Both the position numbers and the translations under genes were made by a program. A stretch of 30,038 nucleotides of DNA from a virus, in IMG/VR virus record IMGVR_UViG_3300031873_001025, positions 1-30,038 of that record; one strand, 5' to 3'. Positions within the stretch are counted from its first letter, which is position 1. Every line of letters starts with the position of its first letter. The notes under the pieces are model-generated. The model made no database searches. It saw only the letters and a list, made by a program, of their open reading frames with translations, and was not told the origin of the DNA. Of this stretch, positions 3,491 to 30,038 are shown piece after piece.

Positions 3491-3497
3491 ATTTCTC

Positions 3498-4058
3498 CTA
3501 CACGTCAACAGTTTTTCTTCTGGATTTTACTTTCACTTTTGGTTTAAAAAGTTCATACACCGCTTCAGCTTCACAGCGGCGTTGATAGATTCCTTTTGTT
3601 TTTGCCCATGCGAACTTGGCAAGTCCAAATGCATCGGCTGAATTGTCCGCACCCTTGAAATCGATCTCCCATACGTCCTTTACGCTGTAAAGAACCATTT
3701 CTTTGTCGGCATGGCCGTTTCCAGTGATAAACTTCTTCAAACTCATTGGAGGAACAACCATTAAATCCTTTCCCGTTTCGTCAAATACGTAAAGACGAAG
3801 AACACTAAAGATCCCTCCTAGATCAAAAGAACGGTGCGTGCTCTCCACGCTATACCCTTCAATTGCCCCCGCTTGAATGTGCTCTGGATGATCTCCGATG
3901 AAGTCCCTCAGCCCATCTCTGATGAACGCCTCCCGCTGTACCCCCCGCTGGTCTCGGGTTACACTTAGCGTCATCGACTGAACATACTCCCCCGTCTCGT
4001 TTACCAGTGCGAACCCTGAGCTGTTGAGCGACTGATCGATCCCTAGGAAAAGGTCCAT
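3498..4058 (-). CDS. RuvC-like Holliday junction resolvase
   Basis: The 186-residue protein has the RuvC/RNase H-like fold signature. The acidic residues are Asp8 (FLGIDQSL), Glu67 (AIEGYS), and Asp138 and Asp142 (DNSADAFGLAKFA). Between them lies the typical ITGNGHADKEMV segment seen in bacterial RuvC. It would cut four-way junctions formed during replication and recombination, and in phages also helps resolve branched DNA before packaging. The C-terminus is a basic tail (KPKVKVKSRRK). The start is fixed: an in-frame TGA lies two codons upstream, and the GIDQS motif follows at once. There is no clear Shine-Dalgarno. Its ATG overlaps the ATG of the divergent + strand gene within one CATG, so its promoter must lie inside that gene. 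It is the first gene of a two-gene unit with the reductase. Confidence 0.88.
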   Translation of the reverse strand: MDLFLGIDQSLNSSGFALVNETGEYVQSMTLSVTRDQRGVQREAFIRDGLRDFIGDHPEHIQAGAIEGYSVESTHRSFDLGGIFSVLRLYVFDETGKDLMVVPPMSLKKFITGNGHADKEMVLYSVKDVWEIDFKGADNSADAFGLAKFAWAKTKGIYQRRCEAEAVYELFKPKVKVKSRRKTVDV

Positions 4059-7293: not shown

Positions 7294-7968
7294 GTGTCAG
7301 CTCGCGCCCTACTGGCGGACCCCAGCGTGGAACTGTCCATCGCTTGGGACGCCTGCCAGCGTCTCTTCGGGAAAGGGATCTCCGAGTGGGAACCTGACAC
7401 CCTCCGTATCGAACTCGCCCGTTTGAACGTTCCCTGTCACCCTGGACTCCTGGCAAAGATCCTGGGGGCACAGACTCTTCTCACCACTCCCCACTGGCTC
7501 CACGACTACGACATCTTCTGTGCCTTCGCTTTGGCCTGTGACGGAGTTCCTTCAGCAGCGGACGCTTTCCATCACCCCACACCGGAACAACTTTGTTGGG
7601 CCATGCGAGAGGTGCAACATCTTCTAGGAAAAACTCCCAACGAAGACGAGGGGTTTGATCCTGACGACGTAGACGCTGCCTTAGCTGTCATCCTTGCAGA
7701 TGCTGGATTTTTCATCGCCCCCGATGAGATCTCCTTTGTTCAACCGGTCCTTGATCGAATGACATTCGTAAACAACGACACGCGAAAAGAAGTCGTTTCT
7801 CGGTGGAATGACTTACGGAAACTTTCCATTGACGATTTACACAGTAAACTAAAGAACGAAGACACCTCTATCGTGACCATTCAGCTTCATCGTTTAGCTG
7901 ACGTTCGCACTCATCTCAGTGTGCGAGAAGAAACTTGGAACCATCAACATGCCTCCCTCGCCGGATGA
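7294..7968 (+). CDS. Protein of unknown function upstream of terminase (224 aa)
   Basis: The gene starts with GTG at 7294; AGGGGT at 7281-7286 gives a well-placed Shine-Dalgarno, three bases after the previous stop. The product is soluble and mainly helical, with several Trp and His residues in the first 110 positions and an acidic stretch (NEDEGFDPDDVDAA). No DNA-binding helix-turn-helix is evident, so I do not call it a small terminase, although position directly before the large terminase would suit one. Its 3' end overlaps the terminase frame by 20 bases (50 if a GTG start is used). The first 200 bases are clearly more GC-rich than the surroundings. Confidence 0.7.
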   Translation: MSARALLADPSVELSIAWDACQRLFGKGISEWEPDTLRIELARLNVPCHPGLLAKILGAQTLLTTPHWLHDYDIFCAFALACDGVPSAADAFHHPTPEQLCWAMREVQHLLGKTPNEDEGFDPDDVDAALAVILADAGFFIAPDEISFVQPVLDRMTFVNNDTRKEVVSRWNDLRKLSIDDLHSKLKNEDTSIVTIQLHRLADVRTHLSVREETWNHQHASLAG

Positions 7969-9574
7969 AGCGTCACTGATCTCTCTTCCCGGGTCTGAAT
8001 ATGCTACCAGACTATTAAGGGTTGACGGTAAACCCACTGACTTTGATAACTATCCCATGTTCCGTGCCATTTATGATGGCAACTATCCGCATCTTCTTCT
8101 CAAGACAAGTCGGCAGGTAGGCAAATCAACAACGATTGCAAACAACTCAATCGTTGAATCAGTCGTCTATCCCTTCTTTCATACTGTCTTCGTTTCCCCT
8201 TCTTCTGAACAAACAAGAAGATTCTCTTCCCTTAAATTGGGACCAACCATTCAGTACTCTCCATTGGTTAAGCGCTACTTCCTTGGAGGAGAAGCCAACC
8301 GCGTCTTCCTGCGTACTCTTTCCAACGGTTCCGTCATCGCCCTCTCTTATGCAGAAGACGATCCCGACCGAATTCGTGGATTGACCGCCGACCGCTACTG
8401 CTTAGATGAAATTCAAGACATTGTTCTTGAAGACGTTGAACCAGTCGTTGCTGAATGTGCTCGTAACTCAGAGTTTCAATATTCCACTCAGTGCGGTACT
8501 CCGAAAACCAATGAAAATGCGATTGAGTCTCGTTGGCAAGCGTCCACACAAACAGAGTGGACAATAAAATGCGAAAGTTGCAATACCTACAACGCGATTC
8601 GTTCAGAGAAGTCCTTCTCTCCCGCTGGACCCATATGCCTTAAATGCAGCGGGCTAATAAACCCTCGTACGGGCTTCTGGCTCGACTTCAATCCAGGAGC
8701 CAAAGTAAAAGGGTTTCATATTTCGCGGGCGATCATGCCCAAGAACATCCCTGCCTGCTGGAACGAAGGAACACCAGAGTATGAACGGGCAATAAAGCTT
8801 TGGACAGATGTGTTTGATTGTTTAGATGGTCCAAACCCATACCCCCTTCACAAGTTCCGCAATGAGATCATCGGTGTCTCTGACAGCGTAGGAAGAAGAA
8901 TTATTACTATTGAACAACTCCGTGCTCTCTGCACTGGAAGTAAGATATCTGAAGTTCCTAGCAACATCATTAACATGGAAGGCGTTGGGCATATCGGTGC
9001 AGGGATAGACTGGTCGGGTGGAGGAAAGAAAGGTGTGTCAAGAACAGTATTGATAATTGTTGGTTTAGTTGCAGGGCCAAAAGTAAAAATTCTCTATTAT
9101 GAGATCTTTCCAGGAACCAACCCCCTTATTGAATCCGAGAGAATTGCGAAAGTACTGAACCAATACCAGTTAGCTAAAGTCATTGCCTGTGATGCCGGGG
9201 AAGGAAATATGCAGGCAGACGTTCTACGGAGAACCGTGCATCAAGGAGCAGAGAAGATCGTTAAGATGCGCTACGTCACGTCAGATTTTTATGCTAGATG
9301 GAAAAAAGACGAAAGGTGTTATCACATAAACCGCACTCGTTCCATTGATTCTGTGATGACTTCCCTTAATCGAGGCGATTGGATCTTTCCAGCAGACGAT
9401 CCAAACACGGAAATCATTTTTAAGGATATTCTTTCAGAGTATGAAGACGTCACCTCGGAAGGGCGGAAGATTTGGGACCATGCTCCCGCCCAACCGGATG
9501 ACTGCTTACATGCAATGAATTATGCTAGAATGGCTCTTCAGATCGCCAGCGGAGTCTTGGATCTAACGAGCTAA
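7949..9574 (+). CDS. terL: Terminase large subunit (ATPase-nuclease) with zinc ribbon
   Basis: This is the DNA-packaging motor. The ATPase domain shows Walker A SRQVGKST (residues 54-61) and Walker B ending in Asp153-Glu154 (RYCLDEIQDI). A zinc ribbon, CESC...CLKC (Cys208, 211, 230, 233), sits between the ATPase and nuclease domains. The nuclease is RNase H-like, with Asp354 (GIDWSGGG), Asp415 (IACDAGEGN) and an Asp pair near 517-518 (QPDDCLHAMNYA). With 541 residues it is a normal full-length enzyme. ATG 7949 is chosen; a GTG at 7919 in the same frame has no Shine-Dalgarno, but ATG 7949 has only a distant GGAA, so the start is uncertain. The stop overlaps the convergent exonuclease gene by 12 bases. 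The portal-like gene is about 15 kb away, which is unusual. Confidence 0.93.
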   Translation: MPPSPDEASLISLPGSEYATRLLRVDGKPTDFDNYPMFRAIYDGNYPHLLLKTSRQVGKSTTIANNSIVESVVYPFFHTVFVSPSSEQTRRFSSLKLGPTIQYSPLVKRYFLGGEANRVFLRTLSNGSVIALSYAEDDPDRIRGLTADRYCLDEIQDIVLEDVEPVVAECARNSEFQYSTQCGTPKTNENAIESRWQASTQTEWTIKCESCNTYNAIRSEKSFSPAGPICLKCSGLINPRTGFWLDFNPGAKVKGFHISRAIMPKNIPACWNEGTPEYERAIKLWTDVFDCLDGPNPYPLHKFRNEIIGVSDSVGRRIITIEQLRALCTGSKISEVPSNIINMEGVGHIGAGIDWSGGGKKGVSRTVLIIVGLVAGPKVKILYYEIFPGTNPLIESERIAKVLNQYQLAKVIACDAGEGNMQADVLRRTVHQGAEKIVKMRYVTSDFYARWKKDERCYHINRTRSIDSVMTSLNRGDWIFPADDPNTEIIFKDILSEYEDVTSEGRKIWDHAPAQPDDCLHAMNYARMALQIASGVLDLTS

Positions 9575-10249: not shown

Positions 10250-10298
10250 GAAACGCAAAGAGCGCCCGCTTTACCCCTGCACGTTTTCCCATTTCCAT
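10224..10298 (-). CDS. Possible 24-aa basic microprotein
   Basis: A short frame starts at an ATG that shares bases with the polymerase stop codon (TGATG). It is preceded by GGAGGAG four bases before the ATG, the strongest Shine-Dalgarno match in this block. It encodes MEMGKRAGVKR, then ALFAFLYTRKNAK, a very basic peptide with a short hydrophobic centre, and ends in TAG. Nothing else explains such a strong ribosome site at the 3' end of the polymerase gene. It may be a real microprotein, or translation may simply continue toward the exonuclease gene. There is no homology evidence. Confidence 0.33.
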   Translation of the reverse strand: MEMGKRAGVKRALFAFLYTRKNAK

Positions 10299-13200
10299 CA
10301 ATCTCCTCCAATGAGAACTGCGTTTCGAAGATCTTCGTACATCTCTTCTTCCGTGTACCCAGCAAGATCTCCAAAAGTTACTTCATCTTTTATTCCTTTA
10401 AGGTAGGTGTCAATCGGAAGAAGATCCCCGTAGGACACCCCCATTTCTTTATCCCATCTGTACGGTGCTTGAAGCCAAGGGTGTTTCTCCGCAGTCTTCT
10501 GAGTTCCGTACTTATCGATGAGTTCAGAGAACTGGTTGGTGTATTTCTTCGGAATCATTCCACCAATGCTGTCGTGAACAGTAAGTAAGAGTTTTCCTCC
10601 GAAATCATATCGGATGATAGGATCAATAGCAACCAAGGTATCAAGAACGATATCTGAGTTTTCACCTTGAATCTCGAAATTGACCACCCTTCTTTCCGCC
10701 TGTGCGCGAAGTTTCTTAGGAGCATTTCGAATAAGAAAACGTCGCCGTCGTCCATGGTAGGTTTCAACCAAACCAAACGTGTTCAGTTCCCATTTGATCT
10801 GTTCGATGAAGAATGGAATTGCGGGAAAAAGTTCAAAAAGAAGTTGAATGATTGTCTTCGCAAGGCCCTCATCGATCCCCGCAATCTCCGCAATCTTTCT
10901 ATAGCCTGCTCCGTAGAGAATTCCAAAGACGACCCTCTTCACATTATCGCGAAGTTTCTTTAAACGTTCGCAATACTTCTTGTCTTCTAGAAGATCCTCT
11001 TTCCCAGCAACGAAATCTTCATATGTCCAACCATGCTCGTCGTCAATCCCTGCTTTTTCAAGGGCGTGTCTCCGGGCGTCTCCAGTAAGTTCTCCTGCAA
11101 CTGCTACAGGGTTAAGTACTTTTGATGCAAAGAACGAGTGCATGTCTCGTCCTTCTCGAAGAGCCTGGTTAAGAATATCGTCTTCAGCATACGATCCAAA
11201 GATGGTAACTTCTGCGCCCTTAGCGTCGATATTGAAGAAACAGTTACTGTCATCGTCAGGAATAAAAAGTCTCTTACACTTCACGCCCTTACGCTGTTCA
11301 GGAGTAAGAAGTAACGCTCGCGGATCGTTATCTGGAATCGTTCCCATCTCTCCCTTCGGAACATTCTGCATGTTCATATTCGAAGAAGAAAGACGTCCAG
11401 TACCCGTACCGTTTTGATTGTACGAGGTATGAAGAAAACCATCAAGTAAACTAAGATCCCTTACGTTTGTAAGGAAGGTATCTTTTGCTTTGATAGCTTT
11501 CTTATAGGTAAGAATCAAATTAGAGAATGGGCATTTGTACTTCGATACGTATGCCTTCAGTGTTGCTTCATTTGTTTGTGCTGCGCCAAGTTTCGTATAA
11601 CTAACGGGCTTATACATTAGCCTGCCGTTAGCATACGTAACTTTACTTTTTAAAAGAGGATCACTAAGTATCGTTTCAATAGCTTCTTGATTTGGGTGAA
11701 CAAACCCGATACCCGTATTGAAAAGATATCTTCCAAGTTGTGCTCCACTTCCTATCTTGAAGCGATCACCAGCCAACTTATAGATTTCCTCTTCTGTTTC
11801 AGCAACGACTCGTTCCAATTTAACCATCGAGTCGTTGAGGTATTCTTGATTAACTTTTACTCCGAAATATTCCATTCGGCCTAAAGCAATCAAGCGAGGG
11901 ACATACCCATTTTTAACAAGATTCTGTAAAGGAGAGGTCTCCTTATACCGAATCTTTATTTCTTTTTTATGAATACCGTCTTGATAGGTATTATCTCGGG
12001 AGACCGTATCTCGATCGGTAAATAACCGGAAGTCTTCTTTATGCATCCGAAGAGACTGGTTGATCGTAAGCTGTCGAGTTACATCTGCGTCTACCGCAGC
12101 ATAAAAAAGTAGATCCTTTAAAGGAATTTTCTTAAATCCCTCGTCTACTTCTACTTTCTTTTTCTTACTCTTTTGTGTAAACTCTCCAGCTTTCTTCGCC
12201 GCTAAAAGAAGTTTTGCATCTTTGATCTTTTCTTGACCCTGCTCTTCCCCTTCCCACTCCTTTATTTTCTTTTCTAGAGTTGTCGCCTTGAACTTCGGTT
12301 GAAGCATCAACCGTTCTAGGGCCTCAGCAATGGGTTTCGGAAGAGAAAGTTCTTTGTCCGCTTTTCCAGTCTTAATACTTTTTCTCTGATCTTCTCCTTC
12401 TGTTTTCTCAAGTATTTCGTGAAGTTTATCTTCATATCCTGAATACTCAGGAAGATATTGTCTCACCAAATACTTCAGATTATATTGCCCTTTTTTATCC
12501 TCTTCTAGGGCATGTTCTCCGTGGTAAGTATCCCAACGGATATTGTTTATTTTTCCGCCTTGTTTCCAGACAACCTTACAGTCGTATTTTAAGTTGTGAC
12601 CGACCTTTGGTTTAGACCCCTCAAGGAGTCGCTGGACCTCTTTCCAGGCTTCCGCTGGATCATAGGCAGTGTTCTCCTCGTGCCAAAGAGGGATGGCGCA
12701 CGCCATCCCCGTGCCCCAGGCAAAGGACACGTTCAGAACTTGAAGACCGTCTCGATGGGGGTGAAGGGTGTTAGTTTCTGTATCAAAAGCAATGAGCCAG
12801 TTAGTAGGATCATTTTTCCCTTCAGTATACGCTTCGATCTTATTTATAAGCGCTTTTACTTCATCTAACGTTTTAGGATAGATGTACCCTTTCTCAAGCT
12901 CTTCTCTAGAAAGGATATTGATTTTCGAGGATATGACGAGGGAGAACGCCCGAAGAATATCAGCTTTGACAGAAGAATATTTCCCCACTGCGGCGGCAAT
13001 GGCTTTGAGAGACATTGTTGCAACCACAGTAATTGGAATGTTTCCAAACTGAATTTCAAAGACTCTGCCCGCAGCATCCTCTGCTTTAGCAACAGAAAGC
13101 CCCAGGGCTCGAAGCCCTGTTAGCCCGTGAGCAACGATAACTAATCGTTCAACCTTACCCGCTGCAATCCGGGCTTGGTGTATCACAGAAAGTTCAGAAG

Positions 13201-13603
13201 ATAGAGGAGTCTGACAACACTGGATAATCTTTTTAGTTGGATTGTCTATGGCGCACTTTACACCGTAAACATACCTAGTTTTTATCCATTTGAAGTCGCT
13301 ATTTTCACTAATAGCTTCTTCTACGGCATTCTTAACAACTCTTCCTGCATCATCTGAAAATGTGAAATGTTTAGTGAAATCGCGAAAATCCCCAGAGATA
13401 CGGTGCTTTGATGGCACCTCCGGAACGTCCCCAACAAAGAGGACGTCCGGAGCTACATGTCCTTCACCTCGGGGAAAATAGTGATAGCCCTTCAAAGCAG
13501 GACATTCTTCGCACGCCGGTCCTTCTTTGAAAAAATACTCGGGGCTTTCACAGACTTTACAAGAAAACGGTTCCGGAGGTTCAGGGAGCGAGATTCCAGG
13601 CAT
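10298..13603 (-). CDS. Family A DNA polymerase, SPO1-type, with UDG-like N-terminal domain
   Basis: This is the likely replicative polymerase (1101 residues). Residues 25-215 resemble family 4 uracil-DNA glycosylases, the family historically linked to SPO1 DNA polymerase. Fe-S type cysteines are Cys31/Cys34 and Cys117 with Cys129 or Cys130, plus an extra Cys15/Cys18 pair. The proofreading domain has Asp274/Glu276 (FDTETN), Asp341 (GHNLKYD) and Tyr501/Asp505 (YAAVDAD), with a charged, Lys/Glu-rich insert of roughly 120 residues (about 370-490) between the last two. Polymerase motifs are TGTGRLSS (733-740), motif A Asp793 (NIDAKGAEV), motif B Lys889, Phe893 and Tyr897 (KRVVFGILYG) and motif C His1010-Asp1011 (LTVHDS). 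No 5'-3' exonuclease domain is present. Two bases separate the start from the primase stop; GGAA precedes it at a short distance. Confidence 0.95.
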   Translation of the reverse strand: MPGISLPEPPEPFSCKVCESPEYFFKEGPACEECPALKGYHYFPRGEGHVAPDVLFVGDVPEVPSKHRISGDFRDFTKHFTFSDDAGRVVKNAVEEAISENSDFKWIKTRYVYGVKCAIDNPTKKIIQCCQTPLSSELSVIHQARIAAGKVERLVIVAHGLTGLRALGLSVAKAEDAAGRVFEIQFGNIPITVVATMSLKAIAAAVGKYSSVKADILRAFSLVISSKINILSREELEKGYIYPKTLDEVKALINKIEAYTEGKNDPTNWLIAFDTETNTLHPHRDGLQVLNVSFAWGTGMACAIPLWHEENTAYDPAEAWKEVQRLLEGSKPKVGHNLKYDCKVVWKQGGKINNIRWDTYHGEHALEEDKKGQYNLKYLVRQYLPEYSGYEDKLHEILEKTEGEDQRKSIKTGKADKELSLPKPIAEALERLMLQPKFKATTLEKKIKEWEGEEQGQEKIKDAKLLLAAKKAGEFTQKSKKKKVEVDEGFKKIPLKDLLFYAAVDADVTRQLTINQSLRMHKEDFRLFTDRDTVSRDNTYQDGIHKKEIKIRYKETSPLQNLVKNGYVPRLIALGRMEYFGVKVNQEYLNDSMVKLERVVAETEEEIYKLAGDRFKIGSGAQLGRYLFNTGIGFVHPNQEAIETILSDPLLKSKVTYANGRLMYKPVSYTKLGAAQTNEATLKAYVSKYKCPFSNLILTYKKAIKAKDTFLTNVRDLSLLDGFLHTSYNQNGTGTGRLSSSNMNMQNVPKGEMGTIPDNDPRALLLTPEQRKGVKCKRLFIPDDDSNCFFNIDAKGAEVTIFGSYAEDDILNQALREGRDMHSFFASKVLNPVAVAGELTGDARRHALEKAGIDDEHGWTYEDFVAGKEDLLEDKKYCERLKKLRDNVKRVVFGILYGAGYRKIAEIAGIDEGLAKTIIQLLFELFPAIPFFIEQIKWELNTFGLVETYHGRRRRFLIRNAPKKLRAQAERRVVNFEIQGENSDIVLDTLVAIDPIIRYDFGGKLLLTVHDSIGGMIPKKYTNQFSELIDKYGTQKTAEKHPWLQAPYRWDKEMGVSYGDLLPIDTYLKGIKDEVTFGDLAGYTEEEMYEDLRNAVLIGGD

Positions 13604-19170: not shown

Positions 19171-19199
19171 TTAATACCTCAAAACAAAGAGGTTGTAAA
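19171..19199 (-). promoter_or_regulatory. Candidate sigma-70-type promoter for the - strand replication unit
   Basis: On the - strand TTTACA (19199-19194) is followed after 17 bases by TATTAA (19176-19171). Transcription would start near 19165, about 37 bases ahead of the GTG at 19127. The -35 overlaps the first base of the sigma start codon. This is the best host-type promoter I see ahead of the 9.5-kb replication unit. Confidence 0.42.
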
Positions 19200-20017
19200 T
19201 GACTATCAACACACATGACGATCGTGTAGCCTCCGACTACTATCAAGAAGTTGGACTATACCCAATTCCAACTCCCGATGAAGAAAAAAGATTATTCGCT
19301 TTATATAGAGACGCTCCTTGTTCAAAAGAGAAAGCGAAAATAAAACAACGAATAGCCTGTGGGTACCTCAAGTTTGTTATCCGTCACGCCCACCGAAAAA
19401 CAAAAGACCCTGATTTACGACAAGAACTTATCGCAGAAGGTAACATTGGACTGATGGTGGCTATCGATAAATTCGATCTCGCCAGGGGAACACGTTTCTT
19501 AACGTATGGTGCTTCGTGGATTGATGTGTACATGAGAGAGTTCATCAACCGAGCACCAGGAGTGCATATCCCCAATCATCGCAGAAAAGATCTCAGAAAA
19601 CAAAAAACCAACGAAGATAAGTTAATGGCTCTGGGGATAATATCGGAATACACCACTGTTGAACCTATTGTTACTTCTTACGATACGTCTCTTCTCCCAG
19701 CGTCCGATAGTCCTGAGACATCAGCACAAGAGATAGAATTGAACATGCTCTCTTATTTAGCTGCCTCAGGACTATCGTGCCGAGAACGTTTTATTTTGAT
19801 TCACTACTATGGACTTCGCGGAGGAGAGACGCAAAACTTCCGCGCTTTAGCTAGACTCCTCTATCTCATTGACGGTACGCTCCTATCGAGTGAGTGTATC
19901 CGTCAACTGAAAGAGAAGAGTCTCAATCAGATCAAAGACTATCTTTCTTCAGAAGGGGTAGAAGCGAACGGACTTCCTAAGGATTGGGTGATTACAGCAA
20001 CACACCAACTGGTTTAG
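19199..20017 (+). CDS. Sigma-70-family RNA polymerase sigma factor
   Basis: The 272-residue protein has the main regions of a sigma-70 family factor. Region 1.2-like sequence is at 11-33 (ASDYYQEVGLYPIPTPDEEK). Region 2 spans about 47-118, with core-binding 2.2 (DLRQELIAEGNIGLMVAI, then DKFD) and the -10 recognition part GTRFLTYGASWIDVYMREFI. Region 3.0-like sequence is GVHIPNHRRKDLRK. A C-terminal region 4 (about 188-250) starts LSCRERFILIHYYGL and contains a helix-turn-helix. The acidic region 1.1 of primary sigmas is absent. AGAGG, six bases before the ATG, is the ribosome site. It is a lone + strand gene between two - strand units, and overlaps the convergent ParB-like gene by four bases. 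Together with the RNA polymerase subunit at 27212 it suggests phage-directed transcription; it may alternatively steer host polymerase. Confidence 0.9.
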   Translation: MTINTHDDRVASDYYQEVGLYPIPTPDEEKRLFALYRDAPCSKEKAKIKQRIACGYLKFVIRHAHRKTKDPDLRQELIAEGNIGLMVAIDKFDLARGTRFLTYGASWIDVYMREFINRAPGVHIPNHRRKDLRKQKTNEDKLMALGIISEYTTVEPIVTSYDTSLLPASDSPETSAQEIELNMLSYLAASGLSCRERFILIHYYGLRGGETQNFRALARLLYLIDGTLLSSECIRQLKEKSLNQIKDYLSSEGVEANGLPKDWVITATHQLV

Positions 20018-22327: not shown

Positions 22328-22752
22328 TATATCTCATCCGACATGTCTGACGGATCCTTTCCTATTTCGCCAAAGTCTTTAAATATCCTGGTCGGTATTC
22401 TCGCGCTATCTTTTCCTAATTTTGGCCCTTCTTGAGTTAGTCTTTGACTTTCTGAGCTTAACGCGGCCATTTCTTTTGCTGTCTTCTGTGCGTCCTCTTC
22501 TTCATCTAGATTTACAACCCGGCTTCTTGTACTCCTTGTCACTGAAGACAAAGAAACCGTTTTTGCCCCCACCTTTGGTGCTACAGTAACACCGGAGACT
22601 TCTACCAGAAACATTGGGCCATTTTCAGTATCGATCATGGAAAAAACAATACTTTCCTCCAAATCTTCAGGAGGAGTAAGCCCCTGAGCCTTAAGATGAG
22701 TACTTATAATCTCTCGAAGTTCTTCTTCAGTAATTCCCACATTGAGTTTCAT
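22327..22752 (-). CDS. Small acidic protein, unrecognised (141 aa)
   Basis: No family is recognised. Residues 1-60 look folded (ITEEELREIISTHLKAQG, then a beta segment ending MFLVEVSGVTV), and residues 65-141 are polar and probably disordered, rich in Ser, Thr and acidic residues with a DEEED cluster. There are no cysteines. Its ATG overlaps the SNF2 stop by ATGA, and its stop overlaps the nuclease start by TAATG, so it is translated together with both. It could be an accessory subunit linking the ATPase and the nuclease, but nothing in the sequence shows this directly. Confidence 0.72.
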   Translation of the reverse strand: MKLNVGITEEELREIISTHLKAQGLTPPEDLEESIVFSMIDTENGPMFLVEVSGVTVAPKVGAKTVSLSSVTRSTRSRVVNLDEEEDAQKTAKEMAALSSESQRLTQEGPKLGKDSARIPTRIFKDFGEIGKDPSDMSDEI

Positions 22753-24752
22753 AGTTCTTCCGCCTTTGCAATGGGCCGCGAGACCTCGGATTGGTACTTA
22801 CACCCTTTATGAAAGGGGTGTATTTGTTGTTTCGCACATCTTTCTTGATCAGAACAAACCGAACAAGTAATTTTTTCTGAAAGCGTATATGCAATCTTTG
22901 ATTTAAACTGAAGAAGTGCTGCTAAGAAAACAGCGAGAGTTCCTTTAGCAAGAAGGCGATAGACAGTGACGGGTCTATCCTGTCCTGGACGATGATTCCG
23001 GTCCTTTGATTGGTCATATTGAAGACGGTCCCATGGGAGAGAATAGTAAATTACGTAGTTTGCTGCCGTAAGATTTATCCCAATTCCAGAAGCAACCTCT
23101 CCTACACATACCCGAACATCTGGATCTTTTTGAAACTTTTCTTGAAGTTTCTTTATATTTCGCGAACTCTTTCCATCAATCCGTATGTGTTTCCACCCAC
23201 GGCGTTTACAAACTTCTTCCATGTCATCCAGTTCAGGAAGAAAACATCCCCAACAGATGATTTTATTCGTATCATCACTAGTAAGAATGTTTTCAATAAG
23301 TCCTTCAAAGATATCGAGTTTTACGTTTTCCATGTCTCTGATTATTTGATCTGGAGGGGCCTCCTTTGCGCGATCACACCCCGGGGTAAATGGTCTTGTG
23401 TGTGAAGCGACACACTCAGAGATGTAGGCGCACCCGTTACAGATTGAATAGTCTTTTCCTTTAATGACAAATCCCGAAGTGAGTTGAAGAAGTTTAGTTA
23501 CTCGGGCCGCACCATGCGGAAGAAGTGCAAACTTAGGAAGATCATCTTCCGTAAAAGAGATTTGCATCTCACGGACAATTTCATTGTATCGTTCAACTTG
23601 TCTTGATCCTAAATCAAAAAGAATATCAGAAATTGTCACTGGAGGAAGATCAAGACAATCCAATTTTTTCATTCGAGAAGCAATACGATCTACTTTGTCA
23701 TTTATCTTATCCATGTGCCTATAACCAATGACTCTGTGTTTTGATCCTGGAGCCACTGTTACGTGACTTTTCCAAAAGGTCTCATAGTTCATCGGCATCA
23801 GCCCAGGTGCTAGAAAGAACAGTTGAGAAAAGTATTTAAGTGGTTGGTCCCCTGCGGTTCCCGTAAGAGCGTATCGTCTTGCGGCTCCCGCTGAAAGAGT
23901 CACGGTTGCTTGAGTTTGGTCGCTGCGCCAATTGCCAAGATAGTGACTCTCATCAGCAACAATAATATCATAATCAAGTATCTCTAGTGGATTCTTCGCA
24001 AGAGGAATAAGCCGTTTTTCATCGTAATCTGGTACATTAATCTTCTTAAGAAGTACCTTTACTTCTTCACTGGTTAACTTCTTAAAATTGAGAAGGAGTT
24101 TTCGTACTGCGGCGGCTCTTGTATTCGCTAATCCTGCACGGGTATAGCTTACAAACACTACATCCGTCTGGGGAAGTTCTCCCCCACTCCACTGAGAAAA
24201 CGACAATTCTCCTTGAGCATGAAACTGAATCTCTTGCTCCCAAGTAGACGAAACAATCGGAGGAGCAACCACTAAGGCTCTCGTAAACTCCCCTATTTTT
24301 TTAAGAATACGGAAAGTCTCAATCATTACTTTTGTTTTTCCTGTCCCCATTTCCCATAGAAAAAACTCTCTCCAGTTAAGAAATGCGAGAGAAATTCCTA
24401 ACTCTTGATGATGAAAGGGGGGTACATGAAACTGGAAACCAGCAGGAAGCCAACTGAGAGGAGATTTTCCGTTTTTCCAACAATCCAGAATATCAATTAT
24501 TGATGTTGCTTTCCGATAAAGTTTCTCTCGCTGCTCTTGTGCTTTTTCATCATATTCGAGTTGTGAATAGATCACCTTAAGGTCACTTACGCTCCACATT
24601 CCAAACGGAAAATATGCAGGAAAAGCCCAATCACCATTCGGAAGACGCTTTGCTCCCCACACACGCTGCCAAGGCTCATCGTCTTTTACCGAAAGAACAA
24701 AGACAGGAGTACGCTTCAGCCATGTCAAAGTTAATTTCGGAAGCTTTGTCAT
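22749..24752 (-). CDS. SNF2-type superfamily 2 ATPase with two Cys4 modules
   Basis: A double-stranded DNA translocase or remodeller of 667 residues. RecA-like lobe 1 has Walker A MGTGKT (135-140), DESH (267-270) and motif III ALTGTA (295-300). Lobe 2 has motif V-like VASGIGINLTAANYV and motif VI QSKDRNHRPGQ (581-591), which places it with SNF2/RapA-like enzymes. A Cys4 insert at 438, 441, 447 and 459 lies between the lobes, and a second with identical spacing lies near the C-terminus at 630, 633, 639 and 651. AAGGA precedes the ATG. The gene is divergent from the portal-like gene with 31 bases between them and leads the unit of acidic protein, nuclease, zinc ribbon, small protein and ParB. 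Phage relatives are often recombination or replication-fork helicases. Confidence 0.9.
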   Translation of the reverse strand: MTKLPKLTLTWLKRTPVFVLSVKDDEPWQRVWGAKRLPNGDWAFPAYFPFGMWSVSDLKVIYSQLEYDEKAQEQREKLYRKATSIIDILDCWKNGKSPLSWLPAGFQFHVPPFHHQELGISLAFLNWREFFLWEMGTGKTKVMIETFRILKKIGEFTRALVVAPPIVSSTWEQEIQFHAQGELSFSQWSGGELPQTDVVFVSYTRAGLANTRAAAVRKLLLNFKKLTSEEVKVLLKKINVPDYDEKRLIPLAKNPLEILDYDIIVADESHYLGNWRSDQTQATVTLSAGAARRYALTGTAGDQPLKYFSQLFFLAPGLMPMNYETFWKSHVTVAPGSKHRVIGYRHMDKINDKVDRIASRMKKLDCLDLPPVTISDILFDLGSRQVERYNEIVREMQISFTEDDLPKFALLPHGAARVTKLLQLTSGFVIKGKDYSICNGCAYISECVASHTRPFTPGCDRAKEAPPDQIIRDMENVKLDIFEGLIENILTSDDTNKIICWGCFLPELDDMEEVCKRRGWKHIRIDGKSSRNIKKLQEKFQKDPDVRVCVGEVASGIGINLTAANYVIYYSLPWDRLQYDQSKDRNHRPGQDRPVTVYRLLAKGTLAVFLAALLQFKSKIAYTLSEKITCSVCSDQERCAKQQIHPFHKGCKYQSEVSRPIAKAEEL

Positions 24753-24783: not shown

Positions 24784-26541
24784 ATGACATCTGAACTTGT
24801 TACTGGTCCCGGTGCTGCCGATGTTTTGCTGGCTCGTGAAGCGGGCCACGCAAATCCGATGTTTGATTATCTCACCGGATTTGTTCCCAGGAAACTCAAG
24901 GATCTATTTCGATGGGCCGAATATCTCGTACACGCTTCAGCGCATCTCTACGCAGTGATCAAGAAATTCGGAGAGTATCCCATCACCCGTTTCGTGTATG
25001 ACACTTCTGCCGAATCTGAGCGAAAACGCTACAAGGATCTCTTTGAAAAGCATCTTCGACTCAAAGGATTTTTAACCGAGGTTTCCTTCGATAAGTACAC
25101 ATATGGAAACTGTTTCATTTCCATGTATGAACCTTTCCGTCGAGAACTTGAGTGTAAATACTGCCCCGTAAAAACGGGAATTCGCTTTATAGACTACAAG
25201 TACAACGCGGATAAAGCCCTATTCACTTTTACTTGTCCCTCGTGTAAACGTGAAAGTTCTGTTTCCCCCACCGATACAAAACTTAATGACCCTTCTAAGT
25301 TACATATCATTCGATGGGATCCAAAACTTATGGATATCTCCCATAATCCCATCACAAATGAAAGTGTGTTCTATTACACAATTCCAGATTGGATGAAAGT
25401 TGCAATCAAACGAGGAGACAGAAATCTTGTCAATACAATGCCTGCGGATATTCTTCAGTGCATTGCAAAAAATAGAACCTTTGAATTTGCACCAGGGCAA
25501 ATTTACCACCTTAAAGTCCCTGGTCTTGCTGGAATAGAATCACACTGGGGGTATCCGCCCATCACAGCAGCAATAAAACTATTCCTCTTTGTTGCCACAC
25601 TTCGTAAAGCAAACGAGGCTATTGCACTAGAGCATATCGCTCCTATGCGAGTCTTTTACCCACAAGCGTCGTCTCCTGCGGGAGATCCTATTTCTACAAT
25701 CAATCTTGCAGAGTGGCGTTCACAGCTTGAAGCCAACTACCGCCGATTCCGTAGGGATCCCCTTCACATAATGTTCTCTCCCACACCCATTGGGCTTCAA
25801 GACATCGGTGGACAAGGAAGAGCTCTTCTCACTTTAGGAGAAGTAGAGGCTGCTGAAAAAAATATCATCCTCTCCATGGGTGTTCCGATGGAGTTTCTTT
25901 CTGGGGGACTTGGCCAGACACGTGGTGAGATCACTCTTCGAATGATCGAAAACCAACTCCAAACCCACATAGAAGACTTAAACGGTGTTATTCAATGGAT
26001 TGCTGATAAGTGTGCCAAGTTCCTAAGCTATACCCCCATTGAAACCCGACTTGCCGATTTCAAAATGATTGATGACGTAGACAATAAACAACTCCTTCTC
26101 CAATTGTTCCAAGCTGGAGAACTTCCTGCTAGTGATGTCTTTGAAGCACTTGGTAAAGATCCTGTGCAAGTGCGTAAACAACTTAAAGAGGAACAAATTG
26201 CTAAGGCACGCTTCCAACAAGACGTGCAAACGGAAGTTCAAAAAGTACAGTCATCCCTTAGCGCACAATCACAAGCGCAAGCTGCAATGCAACAAGGTCA
26301 AGGGATGAATTACGATCAGCAAGCGGTATATGCTGCTGCACAGCAACAAGCAGAACAGCTAGCAAACCTGCCTGATGGTGAGCGAAGATCACAGCTCCAC
26401 TCGCTACAAACTGAAGACTGGGTCTTGTACTCTTGCGTTATTCAACTTCTAGAGCAAATGCGTCTTACACAAGCCGCTCAAGCTAAATCAATGTCACAAC
26501 AACAGGGGCCTGCGCAAGGGCCTGCGGGACCAATGGGATAA
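24784..26541 (+). CDS. Portal-like protein with inserted zinc ribbon
   Basis: The 585-residue protein reads as a phage portal (head-tail connector) protein. It has an N-terminal region with DLFRWAEYLVHASAHLYAVI, a middle segment typical of portals (GIESHWGYPPITAAIKLFLF, then ANEAIALEHIAPMRVFYP), a long helix region around GQTRGEITLRMIENQLQTHI, and a Gln/Ala-rich C-terminus (about 480-560), which is often flexible inside the capsid. A zinc ribbon (CKYC...CPSC; Cys124, 127, 151, 154) is inserted early. The 585-aa length suits a portal. The ATG at 24784 has a weak AAAG ribosome site. It is not beside the terminase, and leads a unit with the gene at 26545 and then the RNA polymerase beta gene. 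The call rests on general layout rather than a decisive motif. Confidence 0.78.
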   Translation: MTSELVTGPGAADVLLAREAGHANPMFDYLTGFVPRKLKDLFRWAEYLVHASAHLYAVIKKFGEYPITRFVYDTSAESERKRYKDLFEKHLRLKGFLTEVSFDKYTYGNCFISMYEPFRRELECKYCPVKTGIRFIDYKYNADKALFTFTCPSCKRESSVSPTDTKLNDPSKLHIIRWDPKLMDISHNPITNESVFYYTIPDWMKVAIKRGDRNLVNTMPADILQCIAKNRTFEFAPGQIYHLKVPGLAGIESHWGYPPITAAIKLFLFVATLRKANEAIALEHIAPMRVFYPQASSPAGDPISTINLAEWRSQLEANYRRFRRDPLHIMFSPTPIGLQDIGGQGRALLTLGEVEAAEKNIILSMGVPMEFLSGGLGQTRGEITLRMIENQLQTHIEDLNGVIQWIADKCAKFLSYTPIETRLADFKMIDDVDNKQLLLQLFQAGELPASDVFEALGKDPVQVRKQLKEEQIAKARFQQDVQTEVQKVQSSLSAQSQAQAAMQQGQGMNYDQQAVYAAAQQQAEQLANLPDGERRSQLHSLQTEDWVLYSCVIQLLEQMRLTQAAQAKSMSQQQGPAQGPAGPMG

Positions 26542-26544
26542 TCC

Positions 26545-27048
26545 ATGGCAAAAAACAACAAAGATGCCTCCTTCGTTGAAGCTCTTCGTGATGAATTAGA
26601 GCCTCAAGAAGAAATAAGGGCTTTTGAAACTCCCTTTTTTCCTCCAACGGAGTTTCCTGAACCGCTGCCAATAAATAGTTTTAAATCCCCTGCGGACAAG
26701 ATCCTTCATCCTCACGCAGCGCTTCCACTGCGTAGAAAATCCACCTTTCACTACGACGTCTTCACAGTTCACCGTGTAAACTGTTCGTCGTGCCGAGCGC
26801 TATTCAAAGCGATGATCCAAAAAGAAGGCAGTGAAGGCCCATACCAGATTCCTCCCTGCTCCCATAACGATCGAGAAGCCTACGTGACCCTGGTCAACCG
26901 GGGACTCCGCGAGGAGGTCACCTTCGCAACCTTCCGAGAAGAAACCCTCAAGGACGGCTCTGTGCAGATCTGTGTGGGCTGGGCTGAGTTCGAAAAAATA
27001 CCGGAACCGCCTCCGACCCCTGATGGATCGGAGGCAGCCCCAGCCTGA
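26545..27048 (+). CDS. Protein of unknown function with CxxC...CxH motif (167 aa)
   Basis: No named family is recognised. The N-terminal 60 residues are acidic and Pro-rich (ETPFFPPTEFPEPLPIN) and probably disordered. The centre has CSSC and, about 20 residues later, CSH (in IPPCSHND), a possible metal site. The C-terminus is Pro/Glu-rich. The gene starts three bases after the portal-like stop, with GGGA eight bases before the ATG, so it is co-expressed and possibly a head component. The last 170 bases are noticeably GC-rich. Confidence 0.7.
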   Translation: MAKNNKDASFVEALRDELEPQEEIRAFETPFFPPTEFPEPLPINSFKSPADKILHPHAALPLRRKSTFHYDVFTVHRVNCSSCRALFKAMIQKEGSEGPYQIPPCSHNDREAYVTLVNRGLREEVTFATFREETLKDGSVQICVGWAEFEKIPEPPPTPDGSEAAPA

Positions 27049-27211: not shown

Positions 27212-30038
27212 ATGGCTGACGCCCCTGTCTTGACCCCCATCCTCATTGATGCTCCCGCTCTACGTGATCGGATACATGCTCGTGTCATAAATGAGATGCA
27301 TTCCATCTTTCCAGTGGACTTAAAAACAAGAACACTGGAAGTAAAGGACGTTGCCGTTCATCAAAAAGACTTCGGTCCAGAGGAACAAAAAAGAGCACTG
27401 ATGACGGGGGCTTCCCTGAATGAAACCATAAAAGGGACGCTTGTTCTTAAAGATAAGGCGACAGGAAATGTAATAGACGAAGCCAAAAACTTCATTTTAA
27501 CTCACATTCCCTACTTTACAGAAAGACACACAGTTATTTCCAATGGGAATGAGTATCAGATCGCTAACATGCTCCGTAGACGTCCTGGAGTTTATACACA
27601 AAGGGCTGGAAATGGTGAACTTCATACCTCATTCAACCTCTCCCGAGGAGCAAACTTCGATCTTTCTCTCCATCCCGAGAAAGGAACTCTTCATATCTCC
27701 TATGACAGCACCAACCTGCCCCTCTACTCCGTGTTACGAGCTCTGGGTACATCCCACGAAGAAATTGCAAATCATATCGGAAGTGATGTCGCCAATCTCA
27801 ACGCTACTCACTTTTCCAAAAAGATAGAACCAACGATTTCAAAGATTTATGCAAAAGTTATCCATCCATCGAAGCAACTTCCTGGCGCTTCACACGAAAC
27901 AAAACTGAGTGCTGTAAAAGAGCATTTTGCCAATACCGCGATGGATCCCCATGTAACAAATCTTACTTTAGGACAGCCTTTTGATAAAGTAACTCCTAAA
28001 GTACTTATGCTCGCTGCAAAGAAACTCCTGGATGTTCACACAGGAAAAAAAGAAGTTGATGACTCCGACAGTCTTGCCTTCAAAACCTTTCATTCGGTAG
28101 ATGACTTTCTCGCAGAACGCCTTCGTCTTACCGCACGAACCTGGGCGCAAAAAGCTCGATACGCTTTGCACGGTAAAGACTCAATCCGAGAATCTCTTCG
28201 TCCCGCTCCGTTTTCGGATTCTATTGAGAGATTTGTTACTACCTCGCCGTTAACTGCAATTCCAATGGGAATAAATCCCATTGATCTTCTTGATCATGCT
28301 GTAAAAGTCACTTCTCTCGGTGAGGGGGGAATCCCTTCAGAGAGAGCCATTCCTGAGGATGCCCGGCTCACACATGCGACTCACTACGGAACGCTAGACG
28401 GTATCCGTACTCCAGAAAGTTTCCATGCTGGGGTGGACGTTCGGGCATCAATTGTTGCCCATAGAGATAACCAAGGAAACCTCTATACGCCACTTCTTAA
28501 CGTAAAAACGGGCAAACGAGAATTTGTTAAGTCAGGAGATCTTACGCAGCATGTGGTTGCTTTTCCCTATCAAGAAATGAAGGGAGAAGTAGACGCATTG
28601 GTGAACGGAAAAATAACTAGAGTCCCGCATACCAGCGTAGCTTATCAAGTTCCTCACGAAGCCTACACCCTCTCGCCTTCCACTTCGCTCGTACCGTTTT
28701 TACGGAATATGCAGGGAAACAGGGCGATCATGGGAGCAAAGATGCAAACGCAAAGCCTTCCCTTGCTTCAACGGGAGGCTCCTTTAGTTCAAGTTGTCTC
28801 ACACATCCCAGGAAAAACGTTCGAAGAACTCTACGGACACATGGTCGTACCCACTTCTCCAATACACGGAACTGTGGAGAAGATTGATGAAAATTTCATC
28901 TACATTAAGCCCCGCACAGAAAAAAAAGCTGAAGAACTTGAGAAAGATGCTGGAGACAAAGACCTTGTCCGAGTCCCATACCAGACCAACTTTCCTTTCC
29001 CTTCTAAAACGGCTCTGCACCATACCCTCAGCGTGCATCCGGGCGATAAGGTCACTGCTGGACAAGCACTAGGAGACTCCAACTACACCCGAGACGGCAT
29101 ACTTTCCTTAGGAAAGAATCTCACGGTCGCATATGTCCCGTATTACGGTTTGAACTCCAATGACGCGGTGGTTATTTCCGAAGGTGCCGCACAAAAACTC
29201 ACCAGTGAGCATATGTATCGTGAGGTTCTTCCCATCACTCCCCTCATCGAACTTTCACAAAATAAACACCACACCTTCTTTGGCGCAAAGTACCAACCCG
29301 CGCAGTATGCTCATCTTGATGAGAACGGAATCGTAAAGAAGGGGGCCAAAGTCAACCCTCACGACCTTCTTGTTTCAGGGGTAACTAAGACTCAACTTTC
29401 TGGAACAGACCTTATCCTTGGAAGAATATCAAAGAGTCTTACTAAACCTTTCCGAGAAATTGTTCTCACTTGGGAACATACGGTACCAGGAGAAATCATT
29501 GAGGTTGTTCGTTCAGATCGACAAGTAGCAATCCTCATAAAGACTCAAGAGTCTATGCAAATTGGCGACAAACTATCCGGCCGACATGGCAACAAGGGTG
29601 TTGTTGCTAGAATTATCCCTGATCATGAAATGCTTCAAGATGCCAAAGGAAAACCAGTTGATGCCCTATTCACCTCTGCTGGCGTCGTAAGCAGAATAAA
29701 CCCTTCTCAGATTATTGAAACGGCTGTTGCAAAAGTTGCCGCAAAAATTGGAAAATCCATCAACTACGATCCTTCTCATACGGGGGACACAGTTGAGTGG
29801 GTAAAGGGACTGATGAAAAAACACGGGGTTGAAGAGAAAGAACATCTTTACGATCCAGTGAAACAACGAACGATCTCAGGGCACGATGGAAAAGGGGTTT
29901 TTGTTGGACCCCAGTATATCTTCAAGCTCTTTAAGAGCACTGATACCAACTTCTCCGGGCACGCTGTAGGCCCCCATGATTTGAACGAACAGCCTGTCCG
30001 CCAAGGTGGAGAGAAAGGGGCAAAGGCTTACGGAAAGA
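27212..30038 (+). CDS. Multisubunit-type DNA-directed RNA polymerase beta subunit (5' part, runs off window)
   Basis: The frame starts at ATG 27212, with GAGGG upstream, and stays open to the right edge (942 codons). It is a homologue of cellular RpoB. NGNEYQIANMLRRRPGVY (about 111-128) matches the N-terminal RpoB lobe. SPLTAIPMGINPIDLLDHAV and KVTSLGEGGI (about 346-374) match the fork/Rif region, followed by HATHYGTLDGIRTPES (388-403). RAIMGAKMQTQSLPLLQ starts at 504. GKNLTVAYVPYYG is at 634, then NDAVVISE. GDKLSGRHGNKGV (785-797) holds the two catalytic-site lysines, Lys787 and Lys795 (K1065/K1073 in E. coli). The window ends in the QPVRQGGEKGAKAYGK segment, just before the expected GEME region. 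It would catalyse transcription with a beta' partner not seen here. It is compact, lacking the large lineage-specific inserts of E. coli beta. Confidence 0.94.
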   Translation, partial: MADAPVLTPILIDAPALRDRIHARVINEMHSIFPVDLKTRTLEVKDVAVHQKDFGPEEQKRALMTGASLNETIKGTLVLKDKATGNVIDEAKNFILTHIPYFTERHTVISNGNEYQIANMLRRRPGVYTQRAGNGELHTSFNLSRGANFDLSLHPEKGTLHISYDSTNLPLYSVLRALGTSHEEIANHIGSDVANLNATHFSKKIEPTISKIYAKVIHPSKQLPGASHETKLSAVKEHFANTAMDPHVTNLTLGQPFDKVTPKVLMLAAKKLLDVHTGKKEVDDSDSLAFKTFHSVDDFLAERLRLTARTWAQKARYALHGKDSIRESLRPAPFSDSIERFVTTSPLTAIPMGINPIDLLDHAVKVTSLGEGGIPSERAIPEDARLTHATHYGTLDGIRTPESFHAGVDVRASIVAHRDNQGNLYTPLLNVKTGKREFVKSGDLTQHVVAFPYQEMKGEVDALVNGKITRVPHTSVAYQVPHEAYTLSPSTSLVPFLRNMQGNRAIMGAKMQTQSLPLLQREAPLVQVVSHIPGKTFEELYGHMVVPTSPIHGTVEKIDENFIYIKPRTEKKAEELEKDAGDKDLVRVPYQTNFPFPSKTALHHTLSVHPGDKVTAGQALGDSNYTRDGILSLGKNLTVAYVPYYGLNSNDAVVISEGAAQKLTSEHMYREVLPITPLIELSQNKHHTFFGAKYQPAQYAHLDENGIVKKGAKVNPHDLLVSGVTKTQLSGTDLILGRISKSLTKPFREIVLTWEHTVPGEIIEVVRSDRQVAILIKTQESMQIGDKLSGRHGNKGVVARIIPDHEMLQDAKGKPVDALFTSAGVVSRINPSQIIETAVAKVAAKIGKSINYDPSHTGDTVEWVKGLMKKHGVEEKEHLYDPVKQRTISGHDGKGVFVGPQYIFKLFKSTDTNFSGHAVGPHDLNEQPVRQGGEKGAKAYGK

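What the first reader, a model, noticed from the sequence alone, without database searches (positions are those of the whole stretch)
27212..30038. Phage encodes a cellular-type RNA polymerase beta subunit
The open frame carries the collinear RpoB landmarks, including both catalytic-site lysines in GDKLSGRHGNKGV. It is placed in a virion-gene unit behind a portal-like gene. Multisubunit polymerases are known in some jumbo phages (phiKZ/AR9 type, usually with split and very divergent subunits), and deep-branching phage versions have been described; this one is a single chain and easily aligned to bacterial beta. It is compact, and the NFED motif reads NSND, so the residue matching E. coli Glu813 is changed.
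Basis: partly seen in the sequence, partly recalled or inferred. Interest (0 to 1): 0.9.

Follow-up and report, generated by a model that had tools for sequence, protein, structure and literature searches.

The report
Phage RNA polymerase beta subunit, truncated
This virus fragment ends inside the gene for a bacterial-like RNA polymerase beta subunit; in every comparable relative that gene runs on into half of the second catalytic subunit, and the window also encodes a sigma factor, so the phage probably brings its own transcription machine into the cell.

Summary
Confirmed: 27212-30038 is an open, intact RNA polymerase beta frame (942 aa) cut off by the contig end. It lies in a phage fragment behind a portal gene and groups with phage, not bacterial, beta (SH-aLRT 100). 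The family is not new: metagenomic phages called mReC (2020) are very probably the same lineage, and phage Arash (2023) carries this polymerase as its most-detected virion protein.

The 'single chain' reading is incomplete. In every window-type relative whose contig runs on, the frame continues into the N-terminal half of beta' (through the DxDGD active site, ending at E. coli beta' ~551-554), and beta'C is a separate gene. Five deeper-branching loci carry the whole beta-beta' core in one ORF.

Also found: a sigma70 gene in the window and in all 33 other genomes of the window's and Arash's clades tested (0 of 13 in the deeper clades); no recognisable alpha or omega; one polymerase per genome; Glu813 to Asn in the window's clade only; His1237 to Lys in 80 of 80 relatives; strand-specific promoter-like motifs in Arash and Vibrio phage D69.

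Best reading: a sigma-using, alpha-less, virion-packaged polymerase. Beta' and virion packaging are inferred for this virus from relatives.

The parts
27212..30038 (+). RNA polymerase beta subunit, 942 aa, 3' end cut by the contig end; expected to continue in frame into beta'N (nearest relatives L008 and L032: whole ORFs of 1506 and 1514 codons)
   Evidence: Pfam Rpb2_6 E 3e-44; PDB phmmer E 5.9e-65; AF2 pLDDT 88; Foldseek E 7e-70; fusion in relatives
29153..29164 (+). NSND = E. coli NFED 811-814; Glu813 position is Asn
   Evidence: alignment of 80 relatives: N 44, E 36; bacteria E 27 of 31
29564..29599 (+). GDKLSGRHGNKG with both catalytic-site lysines (E. coli K1065, K1073)
   Evidence: invariant in 80 of 80 phage relatives and 31 of 31 bacterial sequences
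29933..29935 (+). Lys at the E. coli His1237 position (KLFK), a signature of the lineage
   Evidence: K in 80 of 80 phage relatives, H in 31 of 31 bacterial sequences
26545..27048 (+). small gene between portal and beta, function unknown
   Evidence: ORF; no Pfam or PHROG match
24784..26541 (+). portal protein
   Evidence: 33% identity, E 1e-112 to Arash Gp204, a portal detected in virions; portal directly upstream of beta in 70 of 71 loci
22749..24752 (-). SNF2-family helicase, opposite strand; possible RapA-like recycling factor (inference only)
   Evidence: PF00176 E 5e-12; opposite-strand, upstream of portal/beta in 51 of 56 loci
19199..20017 (+). sigma70-family factor: region 2 clear, region 4 weak
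   Evidence: PF04542 40 bits, phrog_351 E 6e-27, best PDB relatives RpoS, AF2 pLDDT 82; sigma in 34 of 34 genomes of clades A and B, window included
7919..9574 (+). large terminase subunit: tailed phage, same strand as portal and beta
   Evidence: PF05876 E 5e-14, phrog_675 E 9e-46

Best explanation
The window is a fragment of a tailed phage whose genome is probably 150-200 kb, judging by its relatives. The ORF at its end is the beta part of a phage RNA polymerase. In the intact gene the chain most likely continues into the N-terminal half of beta' (clamp, clamp coiled-coil, active-site double-psi barrel), ending after the barrel; the rest of beta' is a second gene of about 600 codons further along the structural-gene strand. 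The enzyme has no recognisable alpha or omega, is the only multisubunit polymerase found in each genome, and is paired with a phage sigma factor (here 19199-20017). Proposed working: it is made late with the virion proteins, packaged, delivered with the DNA, and starts phage transcription from -10-type promoters chosen by a phage sigma, with little or no need of host polymerase; the same core with another sigma serves later genes. Shown here: beta, sigma and portal in the window; fusion, beta'C, single copy, and missing alpha/omega in relatives; promoter-like motifs in two isolates. Shown by others: presence of beta-beta'N, beta'C and a second sigma in Arash particles. Inferred: packaging, delivery, sigma-core binding and promoter use in this virus.
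For: Beta identity and fold. Tree: window in a 5-row group (100) inside the phage clade, bacteria separate (100). In-frame fusion to beta'N in every window-type relative whose contig runs on, ending at E. coli beta' 551-554, with separate beta'C; Pfam Rpb2 then Rpb1 domains in one chain. Sigma in 34 of 34 clade A/B genomes including the window, same strand 5-10.5 kb upstream of beta in 38 of 52 loci. Alpha (PF01000) and omega (PF01192) 0 of 22 with 13 and 14 of 14 controls ringing. One PF00562 hit per genome, 22 of 22. Clamp coiled-coil and flap regions, where sigma docks in bacterial enzymes, are retained in sequence. Virion data for Arash: Gp206 3516 spectra (most of any protein), Gp216 1210, sigma Gp10 467 (PMC10585845). 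Promoter-like motifs: Arash GGTATAAG 31 copies vs 4.1 expected, 30 on one strand; D69 GTTATAAG 18 of 19 on the same strand type and TAAAATAT 17 of 19 on the structural strand.
Against: The window ends inside beta, so its beta' is not seen. Virion presence is from one isolate 35% identical in beta; its authors note the enzymes may be carry-over. The sigma found in Arash particles is Gp10, not Gp196, the syntenic counterpart of the window's sigma; no Gp10-like gene is in the window fragment. The deeper clades (C) have the same polymerase and no recognisable sigma (0 of 13), so sigma is not obligatory for the core. No clear promoter motif was found in the window; in D69 the single-word counts are only 2-3 times expectation. 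Divergent alpha-like proteins would escape Pfam models.
Confidence: 0.75

Rival explanations
1. Phage polymerase of this lineage, but it acts only after infection (a late enzyme that merely co-purifies with particles); early genes are read by host polymerase redirected by the phage sigma.
For: The Arash authors offer carry-over as an alternative. GGTATAAG resembles a bacterial extended -10 element. The gp196-type sigma is not mentioned among virion proteins in the main text and could bind host core. D69 shows TAAAATAT upstream of the beta'C gene on the structural strand, fitting late synthesis.
Against: Gp206 gave more spectra than any other virion protein, above the major capsid protein. The gene sits directly behind the portal in 70 of 71 loci. 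No -35 element is visible at the Arash motif.
Confidence: 0.2
2. A host (bacterial) rpoB, or recently captured host rpoB, on a chimeric or misclassified contig.
For: The chain aligns over its whole length to bacterial beta at about 24% identity.
Against: Terminase, portal, PolA, RuvC, RNR and ParB-like genes around it; the same portal-beta order in 70 of 71 loci; 43-65% identity to window-type viral loci against about 27-28% to the bacterial sequences hit; bacteria a separate group at 100.
Confidence: 0.01
3. A decaying or non-catalytic beta relative kept as a structural protein of the head, as Glu813 is lost.
For: Glu813 is Asn in 44 of 80 phage relatives; very high virion abundance in Arash.
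Against: R678, Q688, N811, D814, K1065, K1073 and R1106 are invariant in 80 of 80; DxDGD is kept in beta' of relatives; Arash and D69, with Glu kept, have the same gene arrangement.
Confidence: 0.04

Closest known systems
Arash-type polymerase (Salmonella phage Arash Gp206 + Gp216; Vibrio phages D69, D148, D181)
   Same: 35% identity over the full beta, portal-small gene-beta order, beta fused to beta'N with separate beta'C (Arash and D69), sigma gene, one polymerase per genome
   Different: window clade has Asn for Glu813; window record is cut inside beta; Arash has a second, virion-found sigma (Gp10) not seen in the window fragment
mReC phages (Weinheimer and Aylward 2020)
   Same: metagenomic tailed phages with beta and beta' close enough to align with cells, forming a deep separate branch next to structural genes
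phiKZ/AR9-type jumbo phage polymerases (Chimalliviridae and relatives)
   Same: no alpha or omega; beta' split after the double-psi barrel, a site shared with cyanobacteria (PMC7598289); one form packaged in virions
   Different: those have two polymerases, beta split in two, very divergent sequence and no sigma70; here one polymerase, unsplit beta, sigma in clades A and B
YerA41 / Carin-5 phages
   Same: about 145-155 kb phages with alignable unsplit beta and phage beta' (a sigma is annotated next to the genes in Carin-5)
   Different: much longer branch, unfused beta, beta' as one (Carin-5) or two (YerA41) genes near DNA polymerase and not portal, Glu813 and His1237 kept
Bacterial RNA polymerase beta (cyanobacterial type closest)
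   Same: fold, active-site residues, flap and compact length
   Different: about 24% identity, His1237 to Lys, changed rifampicin-pocket residues, in-frame fusion to beta' in relatives

Membership tests
Phage multisubunit RNA polymerase, Arash type | full-length homology of beta and same clade | tested here: met
   34-36% identity end to end; 100% supported phage clade holding both
Phage multisubunit RNA polymerase, Arash type | beta ORF continues in frame into beta'N, separate beta'C | not testable with these tools
   window ends inside beta; met in every window-type relative whose contig runs on
Phage multisubunit RNA polymerase, Arash type | portal directly upstream | tested here: met
   window portal 33% identical to Gp204, E 1e-112; 70 of 71 loci
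Phage multisubunit RNA polymerase, Arash type | polymerase in the virion | not testable with these tools
   known for Arash only (PMC10585845)
mReC (PMC7481178) | tailed-phage contig with beta clustering apart from cells | tested here: met
   (bacterial reference set only; no archaea or eukaryotes)
mReC (PMC7481178) | beta' of at least 800 aa with NADxDGD on the contig | not testable with these tools
   window ends inside beta; relatives have NADYDGD, NLDYDGD and other variants in the fused chain
mReC (PMC7481178) | Gp23-type capsid PF07068 (supporting feature, detected in 8 of 97 contigs) | tested here: not met
   0 of 22 and 0 of 16 relatives, T4 positive control E 1.6e-122; the window itself shows no capsid gene, so it was tested on relatives only
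mReC (PMC7481178) | terminase PF03237 | tested here: inconclusive
   window 21.2 bits against a cut-off of 22; 13 of 23 records over it
mReC (PMC7481178) | direct match to the published mReC sequences | not tested
   supplements not available; named contigs not recovered
phiKZ/AR9-type polymerase | beta split into two chains | tested here: not met
   single beta frame over E. coli-equivalent N- to near C-terminus
phiKZ/AR9-type polymerase | two polymerases (virion and non-virion) | tested here: not met
   one PF00562 match in 22 of 22 relatives; a very divergent second copy would be missed
phiKZ/AR9-type polymerase | no sigma70 homologue | tested here: not met
   sigma70 region 2 in the window and 33 of 33 other clade A/B genomes
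phiKZ/AR9-type polymerase | no alpha and omega | tested here: met
   0 of 22 relatives for PF01000 and PF01192
phiKZ/AR9-type polymerase | beta' split after the double-psi barrel | tested here: met
   in relatives: chain ends at E. coli beta' 551-554
sigma70 family (19199-20017) | region 2 (core binding and -10 recognition) | tested here: met
   PF04542 40.2 bits, cut-off 24
sigma70 family (19199-20017) | region 4 | tested here: inconclusive
   second PDB stretch aligns to RpoS 268-332 but scores weakly
Bacterial rpoB (host contig) | placement among bacterial beta | tested here: not met

The most novel reading that the evidence does not exclude
This phage lineage carries a third kind of transcription strategy: one sigma-using, alpha-less core that is packaged in the virion and serves the whole infection with two phage sigma factors and two promoter classes. 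Its ancestor had the entire catalytic core as one beta-beta' polypeptide, later broken after the double-psi barrel at the same place as in cyanobacteria and phiKZ-type phages, so the split would be a convergent or shared weak point and not proof of cyanobacterial origin.
Probability: 0.35. Interest if true: 0.8.

Novelty: new variant of a known kind. Interest (0 to 1): 0.62.

Why it matters
Published surveys of jumbo phages describe either an own polymerase without sigma (phiKZ type) or sigma without a polymerase (PMC7824862, PMC7598289). Clades A and B here have both, in all 34 genomes tested, with no alpha assembly platform. A polymerase that joins bacterial-type sigma recognition with virion packaging and fused catalytic subunits would make questions about minimal core assembly, promoter switching and the age of phage polymerases testable in an isolate that already exists (Arash). 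The fusion and fission series also bears on how beta' came to be split.

Tried and rejected
Host contamination: rejected by tree and synteny; several INPHARED records that looked like phage hits turned out to be, or are probably, bacterial rpoB. Extending the window past its 3' end with an exact 39-base probe in IMG/VR: no match. GTDB genome scan for host linkage: only two partial loci in MAGs; no host assigned. Gp23 capsid as an mReC mark: not found, with T4 as positive control. Locating the named mReC contigs through a sister-sample probe: found 3300017963, 3300017987, 3300017991 and 3300029258 but not 3300017989. Promoter motif in the window: nothing convincing. AR9 nvRNAP beta in the first tree: end branch 3.85, left out of the second. 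An apparent promoter word TATACT in two high-GC relatives is only weakly enriched, not used. A literature search for earlier descriptions of the fusion in this lineage gave none in the open-access library, which lacks most subscription journals.

Full report
OBSERVATION. The frame at 27212 is open to the end of the record (942 codons, no stop). The record is a 30,038-base IMG/VR fragment, so the rest of the gene is missing. Pfam, PHROG, PDB sequence search, AlphaFold2 (pLDDT 88.1, pTM 0.83) and Foldseek (E 7e-70 to cyanobacterial beta, TM 0.78 by query length) all identify an RNA polymerase beta subunit.

WHAT IT IS. Terminase, portal, family A DNA polymerase, RuvC-like, ParB-like, ribonucleotide reductase and nuclease genes surround it. 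IMG/VR scans found well over 200 viral loci with relatives, and four isolates match end to end: Salmonella phage Arash and Vibrio phages D69, D148 and D181. Trees of beta put the window in a group of five with L004, L008, L028 and L032 (100), inside a phage clade separate from the bacteria sampled (100). The trees used only Bacillota, a second small-genome phylum and two gammaproteobacteria, with short searches; they answer 'phage or host' but not the deep root.

ARCHITECTURE. I call the window's group clade A, the Arash group clade B, and the deeper branches clade C (C is not one side of a branch in the tree). In clade A, wherever the contig runs on, the beta ORF continues in frame through the beta C-terminus into beta' and stops at E. 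coli beta' 551-554, just after the double-psi barrel with DxDGD; beta'C is a separate ORF, typically about 600 codons, downstream. The beta' zinc ribbon is deleted; the clamp coiled-coil is retained. Arash Gp206/Gp216 and D69 have the same layout. A sub-clade of B has a further break: beta with the start of beta', then a 380-440 codon piece with the active site, then beta'C. Five clade C loci (L250, L255, L256, L257, L269) carry all Rpb2 and Rpb1 domains in one ORF of 2043-2573 codons (L269 with an extra LAGLIDADG-type insert), and these five form the first branch of the phage clade when rooted on bacteria (support 94). The simplest history is one whole-core fusion followed by one break after the barrel and a later second break; the supports (94, 89) are not strong enough to call this shown. 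The break site is the one that PMC7598289 reports for phiKZ-type phages and cyanobacteria.

ACTIVE SITE. R678, Q688, N811, D814, K1065, K1073 and R1106 (E. coli numbering) are invariant in 80 of 80 phage sequences. E813 is N in all of clade A sampled there (44) and E in clade B (36); clade C also reads N[FY]ED. H1237, near the initiating nucleotide in bacterial enzymes (own knowledge), is K in 80 of 80 phages and H in 31 of 31 bacteria. Several rifampicin-contact positions differ (Q513 to A, F514 to I, D516 to M, N568 to H, I572 to D in the window), so insensitivity is predicted but untested.

PARTNERS. A sigma70 region 2 match occurs in the window and in every clade A or B genome tested: 23 of 23 and 11 of 11 more. 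In 13 clade C genomes there was none, so sigma goes with clades A and B and not with the whole lineage. The window's sigma matches RpoS best and folds as a sigma. It lies on the beta strand 8 kb upstream, a position kept in 38 of 52 loci with enough sequence. Arash, D69 and three clade A genomes also have a second, more divergent sigma-like gene (Gp10 type); none was found in the window fragment. Alpha and omega models found nothing in 22 genomes while ringing in 13 and 14 of 14 controls. Each genome has one PF00562 match.

VIRION. In Arash particles, Gp206 (beta-beta'N) gave the most spectra of any protein (3516), Gp216 (beta'C) 1210 and sigma Gp10 467; Gp196, the counterpart of the window's sigma, is not mentioned in the main text (PMC10585845). 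The authors allow that enzymes may be carry-over.

PROMOTERS. In Arash, GGTATAAG occurs 31 times (4.1 expected under a trinucleotide model, maximum 7 in 20), 30 on one strand and mostly shortly upstream of start codons, with GGTATAAGtAaagTgtA as extended form and no -35 visible. In D69 the matching GTTATAAG occurs 19 times (9.5 expected, maximum 14), 18 on that strand; TAAAATAT occurs 19 times (6.6 expected, maximum 11), 17 on the structural strand. Arash TAAAATA: 15 (4.1 expected, maximum 9), 11 on the structural strand. The words were chosen because they were enriched, so the counts overstate; the strand bias is the stronger point. One clade A genome has TGGTATAGGG 7 times on one strand against 0.25 expected, and GGTATAAG at expectation. 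No such motif stood out in the window. Pairing of two sigmas with two motifs is conjecture.

MECHANISM AND NOVELTY. The best-supported reading is a virion-packaged, sigma-using, alpha-less polymerase (0.75). Membership in mReC is very probable by description but not filed: reference sequences were out of reach, the Gp23 capsid reported there was not found in 38 genome tests with T4 as positive control (two genomes tested twice), and beta' is off the window. It fails phiKZ-type membership on three tested features. I rate the whole as a new variant of a known kind: the family and its virion presence are published; the beta-beta' fusion and fission series, the constant pairing with sigma in two clades, the H1237 and E813 changes and the promoter words are, as far as the open-access library shows, not described.

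Noticed in passing
L004 beta ORF, about residues 597-664: An inorganic-pyrophosphatase-like domain (PF18823, below its cut-off) sits inside the beta chain of a close relative; several other relatives also have enlarged beta frames.
   Followed up: partly
L259 and L269 fused polymerase ORFs; L002 portal ORF: LAGLIDADG endonuclease inserts in the polymerase chains (with an intein splicing domain in L259; in L269 the insert follows the DxDGD motif) and a large intein-looking insert in the L002 portal; inteins might explain where chains broke.
   Followed up: partly
L005, L159-L166 (Arash) and L006, L167-L175 (D69): Two promoter-like motif classes with opposite strand preference: G[GT]TATAAG on the replication-gene strand and TAAAATA(T) on the structural strand.
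   Followed up: partly
window 22749-24752: SNF2-family helicase on the opposite strand upstream of portal and beta, kept in 51 of 56 loci; could be a RapA-like polymerase recycling factor.
   Followed up: partly
window 1439-3508: B12-dependent (class II) ribonucleotide reductase next to a RuvC-like resolvase.
   Followed up: no
window 10298-13603: Family A DNA polymerase with an extra N-terminal part of about 240 residues rich in cysteines at its start; not identified.
   Followed up: no
L146 (YerA41) and L147 (Carin-5): A different, longer-branched phage group with unfused beta, its own beta' and, in Carin-5, an adjacent annotated sigma.
   Followed up: partly
L007 (Acinetobacter phage MD-2021a), L148, L149: Public records labelled phage that hold bacterial-type rpoB; L007 has rplL, rpoB and rpoC in bacterial order, so it is host DNA.
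   Followed up: yes
L119 (second beta in the genome of L084, an uncultured-bacterium MAG): A phage-type beta binned with a bacterial MAG; a possible but weak host hint for clade B.
   Followed up: no
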